NCBI RefSeq assembly: GCF_004324755.1
Contig: NZ_SDMQ01000003.1
Span: 1 to 64,000, forward strand
From: Propioniciclava sinopodophylli
GTDB lineage: Bacteria; Actinomycetota; Actinomycetes; Propionibacteriales; Propionibacteriaceae
Reading direction: 5' to 3'
DNA: 64,000 bases
The notes below the pieces were generated by a model. The model saw only the letters and a program-made list of their open reading frames with translations. It searched no databases and was not told where the DNA came from. Position numbers and translations under genes: made by a program. Below are positions 40,711 through 46,741 of this stretch, piece by piece; position 1 is the stretch's first letter, and every line of letters begins with the position of its first letter.

Positions 40711-41763
40711 TCAGCCGGGCAGGCCCGGGCGTCCCAGCACCACCCACGTCGCCGCGGCGGCCACGAGCAGCGTGCCGCCGACCGCGGCCCACACCCACGC
40801 GCGCCGGTACCACGGCGTCCGCACCGGCGGCGCCTCCACGGGCAGCCGCTCGGCGGGCACCTCAAGCGACGAGCGCGCCACCGTGTGCTCGGCCGGCTCA
40901 CCCAGCCGCGGAGCGGGCCCGGTCAGGTCGGACGTGGGCAGGTAGCGCGCCGCACCCACCCGCGAGGCCGCCGGACGCCCGGGGCGTCCACCCCGCGTCG
41001 GGGCGAGCGGGCGGAGCGCCCCCAGCGTGTCCACCAGGTCCGCGAGCGTCCGGGCGCCGTGGGCGGCCGTGGGGCGCAGCGCCGGGTCGACCGCGAGCAG
41101 GGACGCCAGCGCGTTCCAGAGCCGGGGCGGCAGGTCGAGGGTCCCGACCGGTTGGCCCGCCACGGGCGCCCGGCCGGTGAGCATCTCGTGCAGCACGGCG
41201 CCGGCGGCGTACACGTCGTCCTCGGCGGTGCCCACCGGCCGGTCGGCCAGGCCGGGCAGGACGGCGTCCGTCAGGCGGGCCGAGCCGGGCGAGAGCCGGC
41301 GCCAGTACGAGGGAAGCATGACGTTCTCGGGGCGCACGTCGCCGTGCACGAGCCCGGCCGCGTGGAACGCCGCCAGCCCCGCCAGCACGTTGGACGCCAG
41401 CGCCACGGCCACGCGCGGGGCCAGCGGGCCCTCGCTGCGCAGGATGGTGCGCAGGTCGCCTGCGTCCAGGAAGTCGGTCACCAGCGCCACCCGGCGGCGC
41501 TCCTCGACGTAGTCCCGGACCGCCACCACGTGGGGGTCCCGAAGCGTCCGCACGGGCGACCCGGGACGCAGGACGCGCCGGAGCTCCTGGCGGTCGGCCA
41601 CGGTGTCCGGCGGCAGCACGCGCACGGCGACCGGCTCGCCTGAGCGGGTGTCCACGCCGCGCCACACGACGCCGAGGCTGCCCTCGGCGAGCCGCTCCTC
41701 GAGGCGGTGCGACTTGCCCAGCCTCGGCGCGGCGAGCCGGGGGTCGGCGGGGGTGTCTGCCAC
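40711..41763 (-). CDS. Protein-kinase-like protein with degenerate active site and C-terminal helix
   Basis: 350 residues. Kinase fold about 17-265, then a Pro-rich linker and a membrane helix (about 325-345). The strand-3 lysine is Arg48 (VAVR), the HRD motif is HGD (140-142) and DFG is DAV (166-168); Asp142, Asn147 and Asp166 remain. It is therefore probably a pseudokinase or weakly active. The GTG at 41763 is divergent by 123 bases from the FHA/three-ATPase gene. FHA domains bind phosphothreonine, so a partnership is plausible but unproven. Confidence 0.75.
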   Translation of the reverse strand: MADTPADPRLAAPRLGKSHRLEERLAEGSLGVVWRGVDTRSGEPVAVRVLPPDTVADRQELRRVLRPGSPVRTLRDPHVVAVRDYVEERRRVALVTDFLDAGDLRTILRSEGPLAPRVAVALASNVLAGLAAFHAAGLVHGDVRPENVMLPSYWRRLSPGSARLTDAVLPGLADRPVGTAEDDVYAAGAVLHEMLTGRAPVAGQPVGTLDLPPRLWNALASLLAVDPALRPTAAHGARTLADLVDTLGALRPLAPTRGGRPGRPAASRVGAARYLPTSDLTGPAPRLGEPAEHTVARSSLEVPAERLPVEAPPVRTPWYRRAWVWAAVGGTLLVAAAATWVVLGRPGLPG

Positions 41764-41886
41764 GGCGGTTCCTCTCGGCTCGGGGTGGCCCGGTTGGACA
41801 GCGTAGTCCCTGACCACGCGGCGGCTCCGAGTAGCATGCTGGGCGAACCCCACCCGGTCCTCCCCCCAGCCCCTGAAGGAGCCCCC

Positions 41887-44800
41887 GTGCGCGTCGTCAT
41901 CGACCTCAACGGCGTTCGTCACGAGGTGGAGGTCGTGCGCACCTCGTCGACGGCCACGTTGGGCGACCTCGTGCTGGAGGCGGCCGGGGTGCCCCTGCGG
42001 CCGGAGAAGACACTGTGGGTCGACCAGTCCCGCCACGTCGCGGGCGACCCGCTGGAGAAGGTGGGTCTGCTCGAGGGCGCCACCATCAGCCCCCACCGCA
42101 TCCCCGACGAGCAGCCGACCCGCGACTGGACGGCGCTGCTCGCCGGCGGGTTCCACGCGGGCACGTCCGCGCGCATCCCGACGAGCCGGCCGCTGCTGGT
42201 GGGCCGCTCCCCCAACGCCGACATCATGCTGGACAGCCCCAGTGCGTCGTGGTCCCACTGCTCGCTCGAGCGCGAGGAGGGCGGCGTCCGCGTCCGCGAC
42301 ACGGGATCGACGAACGGCACGCTCGTCAACGGCCAGCCTGTCGGGCCCGAGGGCGTCCTCGTCACGGGGGACGCCCTCGTCGTGGCCGGCGGCAGCGCCC
42401 TGCACCTGACGCGCGACCTCGGCGAGCATCTCGCCCCGCGGGCGGGCTCGCTGAACAACGCCTCGGCGGCGGGGACCGCACCCTTCAACCGTCCGCCCCG
42501 CCGCGGGCGCCTGCCCGAGCCGACCAGGACCGAACCGCCGACGAAGAAGGACGTCGCCGCGTCCAACCGCTTCAGCGTCATCACGGTGCTGGCCCCCCTC
42601 GTGCTGGCCTCGGCGATGGTGGCCATGATGGGCGATCTCCGCTACGGCGCGATCGCGGCGCTCAGCCCGGTGCTGGCGGTCGGCACGTGGTTGGAGAGCA
42701 AGCAACGTCGCAAGCGCGAGCTCGCAGCAGAAGGGGTGCGCTTCGCCGAGGCCATCGCGGAGTTCACCGGCTCGCTGGAGGCCGGCGCCGACCTCGAGCG
42801 GGCCCGCCGACGCGACGAGGTGCCCGACCCGGCCACCGTCCTGCGCCGGGCCGCCCTGCCCACCACCCGGATGTGGGAGCGCCGCGCGGGCACCGACGGC
42901 TTCCTGGCCCTGCACGCCGGCACGGGCGACGTGCCATGGCAGCCACCCGTCGACCCCCACGCCCTGCAGCGCGCCGGCTCCGAGGTGAAGGCCATCGTCG
43001 CCGACTTCACCGTGCGCGCCGCCGCCGTCGAGGTGGACCTCACCGGCTCGGGCGTCGTCGGCATCGTCGGTGACCGCGAGGGCAGCCTGGCCGTGGCCCG
43101 GAGCCTCGTCCTGCAGGCCGCGACGCACTGCGGCCCCGCCGACCTGACCGTGGTCACCTGCTGCGACCCCGGGCGCGAGGAGGCGTGGTCGTGGGCCGCG
43201 TGGCTGCCCCACACCCGTCTGCTGGGGGACGCCTCGGGCGACCGCTGGATCTCCGCCCAGCGGGAGCGCAGCGAGGGCCTGCTCCGCTCGCTGCGCGACG
43301 GCATCGACCAGCACACCACGCCCGCGGTGCTGCTGGTGCTGGACTCCGACGTCCTCACCGAGGGCCGGGAGGCGCCCGCGCGCACCCTTCTGGGATACGG
43401 GCGACCGACCGGCTCAGGCATCAACCAGAAGCTGCTCACCCAGGTCTCGGGCGTCGTGATCGCATCCTCGGTGGAGCAGCTGCCGGCCGCCTGCACCGTG
43501 GTGATCACCGTGGGGGCGGACGCCAAGGGCACCGTCACGCGCCCCATGGACCGCGAGGTCGTTGACGACGTGACCCTCGCCGGCATCGACGTCGCCACCG
43601 CCACCCGCGCTTCGATGGACCTGGCCCGCTACGACGACCCCGAACTGATCGTGCCAGGCGCCGCGCTGCCCTCCTTGGTGCGGCTGCCACCCCTGCTTGG
43701 CCTGGACTCCATGACCCCCGACGCGATCGGCCGGCTGTGGCAGACCGCACGCGGGGTCTCCACGCCGATCGGTGTGGGCGAGGGCGGCAGCTTCGGCCTC
43801 GACATCGTCCGCGACGGCCCCCACGGCCTGGTCGGCGGCACGACCGGCTCGGGCAAGTCTGAGTTCCTGCGCTCGCTGGTGGCCGGGCTCGCGGCGCGCA
43901 ACTCGCCCGAGAAACTCACGTTCATCCTCATCGACTTCAAGGGCGGCGCCGCGTTCAAGACCTGTGAGCGGCTGCCCCACACCATCGGCACCATTTCGAA
44001 CCTTGACGCCCAACTGGCCGACCGGGCCATCCGCGCGCTGGAGGCGGAGATGGAGTACCGCCAGCGCGTCTTCGCCGCGGCCGGCGAGGGCGTCGACAAC
44101 CTGGACGCCTACCTCGCCACGAACCCTTCCGAGCCGATGCCGCGCCTGCTCCTGGTGATCGACGAGTTCGCGATGCTCGCCAAGGACTACCCCGACGTCC
44201 TGAAGTCGCTGGTCAGCGTCGGCGCGGTGGGCCGCACCCTCGGCGTCCACATGATCCTGGCGACGCAGCGCCCGGCCGGCGTCGTGAACGACGACATCCT
44301 CGCCAACACCAACCTCCGCGTCGCCCTGCGCGTGCAGTCGCGGGAGGACTCCTCGAACGTCATCGGCGTCCCGCACGCGTCGGCTATCAGCCGCGAGCAG
44401 CGGGGCCGCGCGTACGTCAAGCTCGGCCAGGACGAGATCACCCCGGTGCAGACGGCGCTGGTCACCGGCCTGGCCCAGGGCGGCCAGGAGACGGGCCTGG
44501 AGCTGCGGCCGGTCGTGTTCGGGCGTCCCCCGGCGCTGGCCGCTCCCCCTCCGAGCTCGTCGGACGAGACCGACCTCGACCTGCTCATCGACGCCGTGGT
44601 TGCCGCCAACGAGGCCGCCGGGTTCGCCCCGCCGCGCCGCGTGTGGCCCGAGGCCCTCGGCGAGCGCGTCGACCTGGCCGGGTTCCCCGCCAGCCGCGGC
44701 GAGGTGCCGGTGCCTGTCGCCGGCGGCGTCCGTGGGTCGCGGGTGTGGTTCGGCCTGGCCGATGAACCCGACCGCCAGCGGCAGATCCCCGCCGGCTGGG

Positions 44801-46146
44801 ACCTGGCGCGCGGCAATCTGCTGCTGGCCGGCATCCCTGGCAGCGGCACCTCCACGACGCTGTCCACGATCGCGCTGACGATGGCGCGGGCCTGGGCACC
44901 CGAGGACCTGGACCTGTTCGTGCTGGACATGGGCTCGCGCGACCTCGAACCCCTGGGCGCCCTGCCGCACACCGTCTCCTACGTCGGGCCCGGCTCCGGC
45001 GCCCGCGAGCGCCAGGTGCGCCTGTTCAGCCACATCCGGGCTGAACTGGAACGCCGGCGCGGCGTGCCGGGGCCGCACCGCAGGACCGTGCTCTTGCTGG
45101 ACGGCCTGGCCGCCCTGCGCGACGAGTACCAGGACTACGAGGGCCAGGCCGTCCTCGACAGCTTCTACCGCGTGTACGCCGAGGGCCACGAGGTGAACCT
45201 GTGGGTGGCCGTGGCCACCACGCGCCCCAAGGCCGTGCCGTCGGCGATGGACGAGGTCACCACCCAGAAGTGGATGTTCCGCCTCGCCGACCTCTACGAC
45301 TACGGCACCGCGGGTCTCAAGCCGAAGGACGCCCCCGCCCACGTCGCTGGCCGCACCGTCGGCGCGGAGACCCGCCTGCAGACCCACGTCGCCACCCCGG
45401 GCTGCTCGCTCGAGGACGCGGTGGCGTTGGTGCGTCGCGCGTGGCCGGACGCCCGCCCGAAGGTCAGCGTGGTGCGCTCACTGCCCGACCGCGTCGGCAC
45501 CGACGAACTCGAGCCCGGCTCGGTCACAGGCGAGCCGTGGCGCATCCCGATGGGGCTGAGCGGTGCCGACATGCAGACCGCGTTCCTGGAGCTGTACGAG
45601 GGCGAGCACGCGCTCGTCGCCGGCCCGGCCCGCTCGGGCAAGTCGACCGTGCTGCTCGGTCTCGCCGAGACCCTGCGTCGCGCCCGGACGCCCGACGGGC
45701 GTCCCCCCTTGGTCTACGGCCTGTGCCAGCGCCGCTCGCCGCTGGGTCGGGCCGACCTCGACCGGGTGGCGGTCGGCCCCGACGAGGTCGCCGCGCTCGT
45801 GGCGTCGGTGCGCATGGCCCGCGGGCCCGTGGTCCTGCTGGTGGACGACGCCGAGCAGTTCGACGACTCCGACGCCTCCCTCTCAGGGTTGCTGGGGGCG
45901 GGCCTGCCCACCCTCCACATCGTCGCCGCGGGGCGCTCGGACGACCTGAAGTCGCTGTACTCGCACTGGACCAAGACCCTGCGCAAGGCGCGCGCGGGGG
46001 TCCTGCTGCAACCGAACGTGGACTACGACGGCGACCTGCTCGGCGTGGTCCTGCCTCGGAAGTCGCTGGTGCCGCTCACCGTGGCGCGCGGTTACCTGTG
46101 CCAGTCGGGCACCTCACAGCTGGTGCAGACCGCCGGGCCCGCCTGA
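41887..46146 (+). CDS. FHA-domain, three-ATPase FtsK/SpoIIIE protein, EssC/EccC-like
   Basis: 1419 residues: an N-terminal small domain (1-90), an FHA domain (about 100-165, Gly106-Arg107, STNGTLVNG; the SRxH Arg is Trp), two membrane helices (about 230-270) and three FtsK-type ATPase modules. Walker A1 is GGTTGSGKS with Lys657 and Walker B Asp759/Glu760. Walker A2 has Thr988 in place of Lys (GIPGSGTS). Walker A3 is intact at Lys1252. This is the plan of type VII secretion motors. No WXG100, EccB, EccD or mycosin gene is nearby. The GTG at 41887 follows AAGGAG; an upstream ATG at 41836 is less likely. Confidence 0.82.
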   Translation: MRVVIDLNGVRHEVEVVRTSSTATLGDLVLEAAGVPLRPEKTLWVDQSRHVAGDPLEKVGLLEGATISPHRIPDEQPTRDWTALLAGGFHAGTSARIPTSRPLLVGRSPNADIMLDSPSASWSHCSLEREEGGVRVRDTGSTNGTLVNGQPVGPEGVLVTGDALVVAGGSALHLTRDLGEHLAPRAGSLNNASAAGTAPFNRPPRRGRLPEPTRTEPPTKKDVAASNRFSVITVLAPLVLASAMVAMMGDLRYGAIAALSPVLAVGTWLESKQRRKRELAAEGVRFAEAIAEFTGSLEAGADLERARRRDEVPDPATVLRRAALPTTRMWERRAGTDGFLALHAGTGDVPWQPPVDPHALQRAGSEVKAIVADFTVRAAAVEVDLTGSGVVGIVGDREGSLAVARSLVLQAATHCGPADLTVVTCCDPGREEAWSWAAWLPHTRLLGDASGDRWISAQRERSEGLLRSLRDGIDQHTTPAVLLVLDSDVLTEGREAPARTLLGYGRPTGSGINQKLLTQVSGVVIASSVEQLPAACTVVITVGADAKGTVTRPMDREVVDDVTLAGIDVATATRASMDLARYDDPELIVPGAALPSLVRLPPLLGLDSMTPDAIGRLWQTARGVSTPIGVGEGGSFGLDIVRDGPHGLVGGTTGSGKSEFLRSLVAGLAARNSPEKLTFILIDFKGGAAFKTCERLPHTIGTISNLDAQLADRAIRALEAEMEYRQRVFAAAGEGVDNLDAYLATNPSEPMPRLLLVIDEFAMLAKDYPDVLKSLVSVGAVGRTLGVHMILATQRPAGVVNDDILANTNLRVALRVQSREDSSNVIGVPHASAISREQRGRAYVKLGQDEITPVQTALVTGLAQGGQETGLELRPVVFGRPPALAAPPPSSSDETDLDLLIDAVVAANEAAGFAPPRRVWPEALGERVDLAGFPASRGEVPVPVAGGVRGSRVWFGLADEPDRQRQIPAGWDLARGNLLLAGIPGSGTSTTLSTIALTMARAWAPEDLDLFVLDMGSRDLEPLGALPHTVSYVGPGSGARERQVRLFSHIRAELERRRGVPGPHRRTVLLLDGLAALRDEYQDYEGQAVLDSFYRVYAEGHEVNLWVAVATTRPKAVPSAMDEVTTQKWMFRLADLYDYGTAGLKPKDAPAHVAGRTVGAETRLQTHVATPGCSLEDAVALVRRAWPDARPKVSVVRSLPDRVGTDELEPGSVTGEPWRIPMGLSGADMQTAFLELYEGEHALVAGPARSGKSTVLLGLAETLRRARTPDGRPPLVYGLCQRRSPLGRADLDRVAVGPDEVAALVASVRMARGPVVLLVDDAEQFDDSDASLSGLLGAGLPTLHIVAAGRSDDLKSLYSHWTKTLRKARAGVLLQPNVDYDGDLLGVVLPRKSLVPLTVARGYLCQSGTSQLVQTAGPA

Positions 46147-46147
46147 G

Positions 46148-46741
46148 TCAGCGCGGGCGCTTCTCGCAGGCGATGCCATCGCCATCGCGATCGAGGTGGC
46201 TGGCGTAGCCGGGGTCACCCTGGCGCAGCGGCGCGGCCCCCGCGTTCCAGGCTGCGGTGCAGTTCTTGTAGTACACACTCTTCGCCGGTGCCTTGGTCGC
46301 CGGGGCCTGCGTGGCGGGTGCCTTGGTGGCCGGGGCCCTGGTCGCGGGTGCCTTGGTCGCGGCCTTGGCCGCATCGGCGTTCACGAAGCCTGCGATCTGC
46401 GTGGGCGCGGGGGTGGGCTCCGGCGCCGCGGTGGGCGCGGGGCTGGGGGTCGGGCTCGGGACCGGCGTGGCCCTCGGAGTCGGCGTTGGCGTCGGGGTCG
46501 GGGTTGGCGTCGGGGCCGGGGCGGTGACGGTGATGGTCACCGTCGGGGCGGGCGCGGGCGCCACCGTGGTCGGGGCCGGGGCCATCGCTGTGCCCACGAC
46601 CATCGCGACGAAAAAGCCGGCGGCCACTTGGGCGGCGCGCTTGCGGTCCCCGATGTGGGCCCAGGCGACGTGCCCCCGGAGCAAGCCCCACAGGGCGACG
46701 ACGAGGGCTCCGAAGCCCAACAGAATCAGGACTGTGCTCAT
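46148..46741 (-). CDS. Excalibur-domain protein with two helices and Pro/Thr repeats
   Basis: 197 residues: helices about 2-22 and 35-55, a long low-complexity stretch of PTPTP units and APATK/APATR repeats, then a C-terminal excalibur domain (YYKNCTAAW and HLDRDGDGIACE) with the DxDxDG calcium loop and a disulfide pair. It is probably an envelope-exposed calcium-binding protein. The ATG at 46741 fits the first helix. It converges with the FHA/ATPase gene, one base apart. Confidence 0.8.
   Translation of the reverse strand: MSTVLILLGFGALVVALWGLLRGHVAWAHIGDRKRAAQVAAGFFVAMVVGTAMAPAPTTVAPAPAPTVTITVTAPAPTPTPTPTPTPTPRATPVPSPTPSPAPTAAPEPTPAPTQIAGFVNADAAKAATKAPATRAPATKAPATQAPATKAPAKSVYYKNCTAAWNAGAAPLRQGDPGYASHLDRDGDGIACEKRPR

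What the first reader, a model, noticed from the sequence alone, without database searches (positions are those of the whole stretch)
40711..46741. Orphan type VII-like motor facing a pseudokinase
A 1419-residue EssC/EccC-like ATPase with an FHA domain is divergent by 123 bases from a kinase-like protein with Arg for the strand-3 Lys, HGD for HRD and DAV for DFG. An excalibur-domain membrane protein converges on it. None of the usual type VII partners is near. This could be an undescribed export or envelope machine gated by phosphothreonine.
Basis: partly seen in the sequence, partly recalled or inferred. Interest (0 to 1): 0.65.

Follow-up and report, generated by a model that had tools for sequence, protein, structure and literature searches.

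The report
Stripped, split type VII secretion system
The large motor protein is probably not an orphan but the engine of a toxin-exporting secretion system whose other parts lie elsewhere in the genome or were lost, and its neighbour is a dead kinase that still carries one threonine conserved in all the living relatives examined.

Summary
The motor (41887-46146) is an EssC/EccC-type ATPase with an FHA domain and, unnoticed before, a predicted ubiquitin fold (YukD-like) at its N-terminus. It faces a pseudokinase across 123 bases.

It is orphan only locally. In other Actinomycetota its orthologue sits in a conserved locus. Of 32 well-flanked loci, 31 have a branched-chain-amino-acid-type binding protein, 31 a coiled envelope protein, 28 a kinase, 28 a WXG100 and 26 an RHS N-domain. 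All 22 sister-locus kinase rows examined are intact.

In this genus the locus is stripped and split. Motor and kinase-derived pseudokinase stay here. A WXG100 orthologue and an RHS gene (frameshifted in this assembly) sit in a remote island. The binding and coiled proteins were not found. The WXG100 occurs in all 9 searched genomes with a full-length motor (own included) and in 1 of the other 137.

The pseudokinase lost its catalytic motifs, activation loop and ectodomain, but keeps a juxtamembrane Thr invariant in 25 of 25 sequences; the motor's FHA keeps its phosphothreonine pocket (38 of 38). Best reading: a reduced type VII system in which the pseudokinase is a scaffold read by the motor's FHA. 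Interaction and secretion are untested. A new variant of a known kind.

The parts
41887..46146 (+). Type VII motor: UBL-FHA-two TM-three ATPase modules (1419 aa)
   Evidence: orthologues at 42-82% identity over full length in 8 other genomes; dN/dS 0.21-0.22 against G001 and G012
41887..42108 (+). Motor residues 1-74: predicted ubiquitin-fold (YukD-like) domain
   Evidence: AlphaFold2 model pLDDT 88, strand-strand-helix-strand-strand-helix-strand; top VIA row YukD 2bps Z 7.1 over 66 residues at 2.5 A, tied with ubiquitin Z 7.0; Foldseek ubiquitin E 2.8e-3; best PDB profile hit BAG1 UBL E 0.014. The Pfam YukD model does not list it
42115..42426 (+). Motor residues about 77-180: FHA domain with intact phosphothreonine pocket (R107, S121, H124, N143)
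   Evidence: PF00498; model matches GarA/OdhI at Z about 16; invariant in 38 of 38 aligned motors; which residues make the pocket is recalled knowledge of FHA domains
42568..42690 (+). Motor residues about 228-268: two hydrophobic segments in tandem, as in EccC/EssC
   Evidence: read from the sequence; the hydropathy scan flags only the first one
43837..43860 (+). Walker A of ATPase module 1 (GTTGSGKS, residues 651-658)
   Evidence: invariant in 9 of 9
44830..44853 (+). Degenerate Walker A of module 2 (GIPGSGTS, residues 982-989): the Lys position is Thr
   Evidence: T988 invariant in 9 of 9
45622..45645 (+). Walker A of ATPase module 3 (GPARSGKS, residues 1246-1253)
40711..41763 (-). Pseudokinase (350 aa): cytoplasmic kinase fold without activation loop, linker, one C-terminal TM, no ectodomain
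   Evidence: tree places it with T7-locus kinases, 98/97; dN/dS 0.37 against G001
40882..40884 (-). Codon (ACG) of Thr294 of the pseudokinase, the invariant juxtamembrane Thr (candidate FHA ligand)
   Evidence: 24 of 24, plus G012; codon checked
41764..41886 (.). 123-base divergent intergenic region between pseudokinase and motor

Best explanation
The motor is the ATPase of a type VII secretion system that exports a WXG100 protein and RHS toxins, presumably against other bacteria. Shown by sequence: the usual locus elsewhere in Actinomycetota encodes WXG100, FHA-ATPase motor, intact transmembrane Ser/Thr kinase with a large ectodomain, branched-chain-amino-acid-type (HAAT) binding protein, coiled envelope protein and RHS proteins; in this genus the system is split into two chromosomal places (motor + pseudokinase here; WXG100 + RHS gene + DUF7919 protein in a remote island), the binding and coiled proteins are not found, and the kinase has become a pseudokinase. 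Predicted: a ubiquitin fold at the motor's N-terminus. Inferred: the motor hexamerises at the membrane as EccC/EssC do, and its UBL and FHA domains take the place that YukD and the FHA domains of YukB have in T7SSb. Inferred: in full systems the kinase senses something outside (perhaps through the binding protein), phosphorylates its own juxtamembrane Thr, and the motor's FHA docks on that pThr, licensing export. Inferred: here the sensor half is gone; the pseudokinase stays as a membrane scaffold whose Thr294 is phosphorylated in trans by one of the cell's ordinary kinases, or is bound without phosphate as YukC is by YukB.
For: Motor orthologues over 1000 bits in 47 of 60 loci examined; among the 32 of these with enough flank held, binding protein 31, coiled protein 31, kinase 28, WXG100 28, RHS N-domain 26. 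WXG100 in 9 of 9 genomes with full-length motor and in 1 of the other 137 (Fisher p 1.5e-12, relatedness not corrected). WXG100-RHS island in the same order in G000, G001, G012; the RHS N-domain of G001 and G012 matches that of sister-locus RHS proteins (62-65% to L042, E 1e-57 or better). Coiled and binding proteins matched in none of 13 genus members but in all 6 other full-length-motor genomes. Pseudokinase groups with T7-locus kinases; 22 of 22 such kinase rows keep Lys, HRD and DFG, both complete pseudokinases lose these motifs and 22 aligned activation-segment residues; none of the 7 other kinase matches in own genome reaches the ectodomain part of the profile. Thr294 invariant 25 of 25, while a second linker Thr, present in 22 of 22 kinases, is Ala in both complete pseudokinases. 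FHA pocket invariant 38 of 38. dN/dS: motor 0.22, pseudokinase 0.37. Precedents: YukC pseudokinase domain binds the YukB FHA region (PMC9600267, passages); MviN pseudokinase is phosphorylated and then bound by the FHA of FhaA (PMC12599244, passages).
Against: Two envelope components of the full locus are missing, so an export path through the cell wall is unexplained. In the binding-protein search only 12 of 26 first-look candidates of this genome were scored. The RHS gene of this genome is frameshifted in this assembly, and WXG100 dN/dS is high (0.50-0.66, 92-93 codons). The close-clade motor is seen in only 4 of 13 genus members, one of them a fragment. Co-occurrence does not prove that motor and remote WXG100 work together. 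In T7SSb the FHA-pseudokinase contact is apparently phosphorylation-independent (PMC9600267), so the invariant Thr could have another role; a stricter motif around it fails in 3 of 24 rows. Neither the Pfam YukD model nor any strong sequence match supports the ubiquitin fold, which rests on a prediction. No experiment exists.
Confidence: 0.7

Rival explanations
1. A relic in decay: the genus is losing the system; motor and pseudokinase are remnants that no longer export anything.
For: Two envelope components not found in the genus, kinase dead, RHS gene frameshifted in G000, close-clade motor not seen in 9 of 13 genus members; one of these 9, G007, has bcp and topoisomerase IB adjacent with nothing between, the other 8 have other genes beside bcp.
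Against: Motor open and conserved in 3 species at dS 0.5-0.6 with dN/dS 0.17-0.22, pseudokinase 0.37; truncation within two residues of the same point and the same retained Thr in 3 species; RHS intact in G001 and G012; WXG100 kept in all three though unlinked.
Confidence: 0.17
2. EssB-like scaffold without phosphate: a refinement of the best explanation in which the pseudokinase holds the motor by a phosphorylation-independent FHA contact, as YukC holds YukB.
For: Topology (cytoplasmic pseudokinase, one TM) and FHA motor partner as in T7SSb (PMC9600267 passages).
Against: In T7SSb the pThr-binding residues are not conserved (PMC9600267; PMC11217815); here they are invariant in 38 of 38 and a linker Thr is invariant in 25 of 25. 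No EssB/YukC family appears among the matches shown.
Confidence: 0.3
3. One reading: an undescribed export or envelope machine unrelated to WXG100 secretion.
For: Nothing type VII that I searched for is adjacent in this genome.
Against: Linkage of orthologous motors to WXG100 and RHS in sister genera, and co-occurrence with the unlinked WXG100 here.
Confidence: 0.06
4. A DNA translocase of the FtsK/HerA kind.
For: FtsK/SpoIIIE domain.
Against: Best models are EssC and EccC; best PDB relatives are 4nh0 (E 3.7e-68; labelled FtsK/SpoIIIE, recalled to be an EccC), YukB 9qks (E 1.3e-51) and EccC5, against DNA translocase FtsK 2iuu E 2e-15; the genome has another, FtsK-like protein.
Confidence: 0.02

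Closest known systems
T7SSd (Tsd, Bifidobacterium/Olsenella; Garrett et al. 2024, PMC11217815: abstract, sections 7 and 9, passages)
   Same: Actinomycetota; FHA-bearing ATPase with conserved pThr motif, one WXG100, a transmembrane Ser/Thr kinase, an RHS candidate substrate.
   Different: As described, T7SSd has TsdH and TsdI (1654 residues in O. uli) with a C-terminal TM, and no ubiquitin-like protein. Here a predicted UBL is part of the motor; the large envelope protein is ~900-1000 residues, with a hydrophobic segment near the N-terminus in 4 of 5 examined and none at the C-terminus; a HAAT-type binding protein is present in the usual locus; in this genus the kinase is dead and two components are gone. 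No Tsd sequence was at hand for direct comparison.
T7SSb (Yuk/Ess, Bacillota)
   Same: FHA + EssC-type ATPase, pseudokinase with one TM (YukC/EssB), ubiquitin-fold partner (YukD).
   Different: UBL part of the motor, one FHA found and with an intact pThr pocket, pseudokinase derived from an actinobacterial receptor-like kinase, no separate YukD over cut-off.
MviN (Rv3910)-FhaA (PMC12599244, passages)
   Same: Membrane pseudokinase whose phosphorylated tail is read by an FHA domain.
   Different: There it controls peptidoglycan synthesis; here the FHA is part of a secretion motor.
T7SSa/ESX (EccC, EccB, EccD, MycP)
   Same: Homologous ATPase modules.
   Different: EccC has no FHA; no above-cut-off mycosin found; EccB not found, with a silent control.

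Membership tests
Type VII secretion system (general) | FtsK/SpoIIIE-type EccC/EssC ATPase with N-terminal TMs | tested here: met
   scores stay under the NCBIfam equivalog cut-offs
Type VII secretion system (general) | WXG100 protein | tested here: met
   one orthologous WXG100 in the genome, unlinked; under Pfam and NCBIfam cut-offs alone but 58-74% identical to locus WXG100s of relatives
Type VII secretion system (general) | Motor-dependent secretion | not testable with these tools
   needs experiment
T7SSa (ESX) | EccC without FHA domain | tested here: not met
   FHA present
T7SSa (ESX) | EccB | tested here: inconclusive
   no match, but the control genomes rang nowhere
T7SSa (ESX) | Mycosin | tested here: inconclusive
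   only hits under cut-off, best 120 bits against 279; no control genome reached the cut-off either
T7SSb (Yuk/Ess) | FHA on the ATPase without pThr residues, paired with a TM pseudokinase | tested here: not met
   TM pseudokinase present but pThr residues intact
T7SSb (Yuk/Ess) | Separate ubiquitin-like YukD/EsaB | tested here: not met
   best own-genome hit E 0.097, under cut-off; B. subtilis control rang
T7SSb (Yuk/Ess) | EsaA and EssA | not tested
   not searched for
T7SSd | FHA ATPase with conserved pThr motif | tested here: met
T7SSd | Ser/Thr kinase TsdD | tested here: not met
   only a pseudokinase here; intact in 22 of 22 sister-locus rows
T7SSd | No ubiquitin-like component | tested here: inconclusive
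   predicted UBL at the motor N-terminus; TsdC N-termini were not examined for the same fold
T7SSd | TsdI: large envelope protein with C-terminal TM | tested here: inconclusive
   sister-locus large protein shows no C-terminal hydrophobic segment in 5 of 5 and has no match in own genome; TsdI itself was not searched for
T7SSd | TsdH small single-TM protein | not tested
   not searched for
Pseudokinase | Damage to strand-3 Lys, HRD and DFG | tested here: met
   the Asp of HRD and of DFG remains in this genome's copy, the HRD Asp is lost in G001; activity not testable here

The most novel reading that the evidence does not exclude
A type VII subtype not among T7SSa-j as described in the paper sections read: a ubiquitin fold built into an FHA-bearing motor, with a HAAT-type ligand-binding protein and a receptor-like kinase forming an outside-to-inside switch for RHS-toxin export. 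In the window's genus this switch has been cut out, leaving a minimal system of motor, WXG100 and a pseudokinase that keeps only one of two conserved linker threonines: an actinobacterial parallel to how EssB may have arisen from a kinase.
Probability: 0.5. Interest if true: 0.78.

Novelty: new variant of a known kind. Interest (0 to 1): 0.62.

Why it matters
It turns an apparently orphan motor into part of a recognisable, widely distributed secretion locus with RHS cargo in Actinomycetota (Cutibacterium, Arthrobacter, Microbacterium, Nocardioides and others). It offers a candidate for the ubiquitin-like part reported missing from T7SSd. It also gives a natural before-and-after pair, intact kinase in sister genera and pseudokinase here, with one retained Thr and an intact FHA pocket. 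That makes the open question of how FHA and (pseudo)kinase domains gate type VII export directly testable by single substitutions.

Tried and rejected
Rejected: excalibur protein as a component (no match beside the motor in G001, 17-residue match in G012; another gene in its place in G008). Rejected: a second, complete T7 motor in the genome (PF01580 finds only this motor and one FtsK-like protein, all 56 candidates scored). Rejected: DNA translocase.

Led nowhere or limited: Pfam gives no useful name to the ~900-1000-residue protein (one tested); NCBIfam (two tested) and PDB profile matches are coiled-coil-like and weak. Fold search of the 1-200 model was filled by FHA rows, so residues 1-74 were modelled alone. 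There YukD and ubiquitin are tied, all Z are under 8, and the Pfam YukD model does not list the domain, so 'YukD-like' rests on predicted fold plus context. The EccB search has a silent control. No Bifidobacterium or Olsenella T7SSd sequence was obtained, so T7SSd is compared by description only. Six library searches listed no paper that, by title or abstract start, describes this gene set; the listed papers were not read through. In one search the profile hit of the own pseudokinase runs about 21 codons past its stop, towards the end of the neighbouring bcp gene; I took this as noise.

Rows left out: the other matches (about 30-40% identity or partial) are not counted as the close clade, and only 4 candidates per genome were scored there. 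G008 has only a C-terminal fragment (85% identity, genome 72% complete) and no WXG100 match. G035 has a partial motor (residues 631-1416) beside coiled-protein and binding-protein matches and a different small WXG100-sized protein (by eye). G085 has WXG100, RHS-like genes and a kinase without ectodomain but no motor match (86% complete). G142 has a weak coiled-protein match. Searches used 60 of the 74 loci; the last 14, nearly all partial motor matches, were left out. One search used 17 of the named loci for kinases, one of which (L104) gave none; of the 22 sister-locus kinase rows two are near-copies of others. In one search, which tried a stricter Thr motif, 3 of the 24 rows (L058, L094, L098) had no match, nor did the two outside kinases (G085, G012 C323); the 24 of 24 is for the aligned Thr itself. 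Gene labels such as mechanosensitive channel, sialidase-like, transporter, hsp20-like, MMPL-like, groEL and Tad pilus are by eye and come from no family search.


Full report
WHAT IS THERE. The motor starts at the GTG at 41887 behind AAGGAG and runs to 46146, 1419 residues. It has an FHA domain and FtsK/SpoIIIE modules, and scores best against EssC, then EccCa and EccCb, all under their equivalog cut-offs. Its nearest solved relatives are 4nh0 (E 3.7e-68; labelled FtsK/SpoIIIE, recalled to be an EccC) and YukB of 9qks (E 1.3e-51); DNA translocase FtsK is far behind (2e-15). The Walker A of module 2 has Thr in place of Lys in 9 of 9 orthologues. Divergent from it by 123 bases is a 350-residue kinase-like protein with VAVR, HGD and DAV.

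AN UNNOTICED DOMAIN. Residues 1-74 of the motor precede the FHA. A model built from 38 sequences has ubiquitin topology at pLDDT 88. Foldseek's best hit is ubiquitin (E 2.8e-3; none at 0.001 or better). The structural re-alignment puts B. subtilis YukD first (2bps, Z 7.1, 66 residues, 2.5 A), tied with ubiquitin (Z 7.0), with YukD of the 9qks complex at Z 6.6. Against it: Z is under 8 throughout, sequence-profile hits to UBL proteins are weak (BAG1 E 0.014), and the Pfam YukD model does not list the domain. The strand order and the type VII context make a built-in ubiquitin-like subunit likely, not certain. The own genome has no separate YukD above cut-off. Garrett et al. report that T7SSd lacks a ubiquitin-like protein (PMC11217815, section 9).

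NOT AN ORPHAN: RELATIVES. Among 146 genomes searched, 96 match the motor at E 1e-40 or better; 9 (own included) have a full-length orthologue at 42% identity or more, and G008 has a fragment. A named scan returned 74 loci. Of the 60 that I examined, 47 have a motor of at least 1000 bits; by their record titles they come from genera such as Propionibacterium, Cutibacterium, Microlunatus, Arthrobacter, Microbacterium, Nocardioides and Actinomyces. In the 32 of these with at least 6 kb upstream and 2.5 kb downstream held, the following lie nearby: binding protein 31, large coiled protein 31, kinase 28, WXG100 28, RHS N-domain 26. Actinomyces dentalis (L082) has none of them. Of the 10 loci between 400 and 1000 bits, mostly Acidimicrobiales and partly short, 7 show motor plus WXG100 only; diverged partners could be missed by that search. 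The binding protein is of the branched-chain amino-acid type (4gnr E 1.6e-10; PF00532 over its cut-off). The large protein has a hydrophobic segment near the N-terminus in 4 of 5 examined (none flagged in L044) and no C-terminal one in any. The two RHS proteins scanned from full loci carry RHS repeats, one of them also a pretoxin HINT domain.

NOT AN ORPHAN: THIS GENOME. A profile of the locus WXG100s finds an orthologue in 10 of 146 genomes: the 9 with the full-length motor, plus G085. In G000 it lies on contig C4. There, and in the same order in G001 and G012, are a DUF7919 protein (Pfam tested for G000), an RHS gene for about 1700-1800 residues, a gene that looks like a mechanosensitive channel, the WXG100 and a sialidase-like gene. 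In G001 and G012 the RHS protein starts with the locus-type N-terminal domain (62-65% identity to that of L042). In this genome the reading frame is broken after that domain in the present assembly. The coiled and binding proteins match in none of the 13 genus members but in all 6 other full-length-motor genomes (in one search only 12 of 26 candidates were scored for this genome). Fisher's test on motor against WXG100 gives 1.5e-12; relatives are not independent, so the stronger point is that two unlinked loci are present together or absent together within one genus, G008 (fragmentary) apart. Of the 9 genus members without the close-clade motor, G007 has bcp directly beside topoisomerase IB with no cassette between; the other 8 have other genes beside bcp.

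THE PSEUDOKINASE. In 22 of 22 kinase rows from sister loci (two near-copies) Lys, HRD and DFG are intact. In the genus the Lys is Arg, HRD is HGD or HGA, DFG is DAV or DPV, 22 aligned activation-segment residues are gone and the protein ends just after the TM, where relatives have an ectodomain of roughly 270 residues. A tree places the two complete pseudokinases with the T7-locus kinases (98/97) and away from the ordinary kinases of the genus; their stem is long (1.96), so the exact branching is unsure. None of the 7 other kinase matches in the genome reaches the ectodomain part of the profile. Selection has kept both genes: dN/dS is 0.22 for the motor and 0.37 for the pseudokinase against G001 at dS about 0.6. 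The linker before the TM is nearly unconserved, yet one Thr (294 here, in HTVAR or HTMVR; in most relatives AT-[VIM]-[LVA]-[RK]) is invariant in 24 of 24 rows, and G012's fragment makes it 25. A second linker Thr, present in 22 of 22 kinases, is Ala in both complete pseudokinases. The motor's FHA keeps Gly106-Arg107, Ser121, His124 and Asn143 in 38 of 38 and models closest to GarA and OdhI type FHA domains.

MECHANISM. Known: in B. subtilis the YukC pseudokinase domain co-purifies with the FHA region of YukB, apparently independently of phosphorylation, and YukC is the interaction hub (PMC9600267, passages). [quoted passage not shown] Inferred: here the two ideas meet. In complete loci a receptor-like kinase, perhaps informed by the binding protein, phosphorylates its juxtamembrane Thr and thereby recruits or licenses the FHA motor. 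In the window's genus the sensing half is gone and the pseudokinase remains as the docking post, with phosphate supplied by another kinase or not needed. WXG100 and RHS toxin are the expected cargo. Shown: components, linkage, co-occurrence, motif loss and retention. Not shown: any interaction, phosphorylation or secretion.

PLACE AMONG KNOWN SYSTEMS. It works like a type VII system. It is not T7SSa (FHA present) nor T7SSb (pThr pocket intact, no separate YukD). It resembles T7SSd most, but differs from the published description in the built-in UBL, the binding protein, the shorter coiled protein and, here, the dead kinase. Without a Tsd sequence the distance to T7SSd cannot be measured. Six searches of the paper library listed no paper whose title or abstract start describes this gene set; the main text of PMC11217815 has no occurrence of Propioni-, Actinomyces or lipoprotein, nor of Cutibacterium or Arthrobacter. 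Its supplements were not available.

VERDICT. Real, conserved and explained in outline; a new variant of a known kind, with a sharp test of (pseudo)kinase-FHA gating.

Noticed in passing
G000 contig C4 (L137:2751-8134): The genome's own RHS toxin-like gene near the WXG100 is frameshifted after its N-terminal domain in this assembly; intact in G001 and G012.
   Followed up: partly
L048, L050, L053: A second motor family (about 30% identical) in related genomes, also with an N-terminus that looks ubiquitin-like by eye; L053 lies beside genes that look like a Tad pilus and WXG100-sized pairs, a layout reported for T7SSg/h in Bacillota.
   Followed up: no
L103, L107: In these diverged loci (L107 Acidimicrobiales) the motor is followed by a WXG100, a second small protein and a groEL-like gene; no kinase or binding protein matched.
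   Followed up: no
L140 (G085): WXG100 and RHS-like genes beside an intact kinase lacking the ectodomain, an MMPL-like transporter and an envelope protein (labels by eye), with no motor found in an 86% complete assembly.
   Followed up: no
L167 (G012 contig C323): G012 also carries an intact kinase that groups with the G085 kinase just outside the T7-locus kinases (long branches).
   Followed up: partly
window 46148-46741: Excalibur-domain membrane protein after the motor; the slot is variable in the genus (another gene in G008, an hsp20-like gene in G012).
   Followed up: yes
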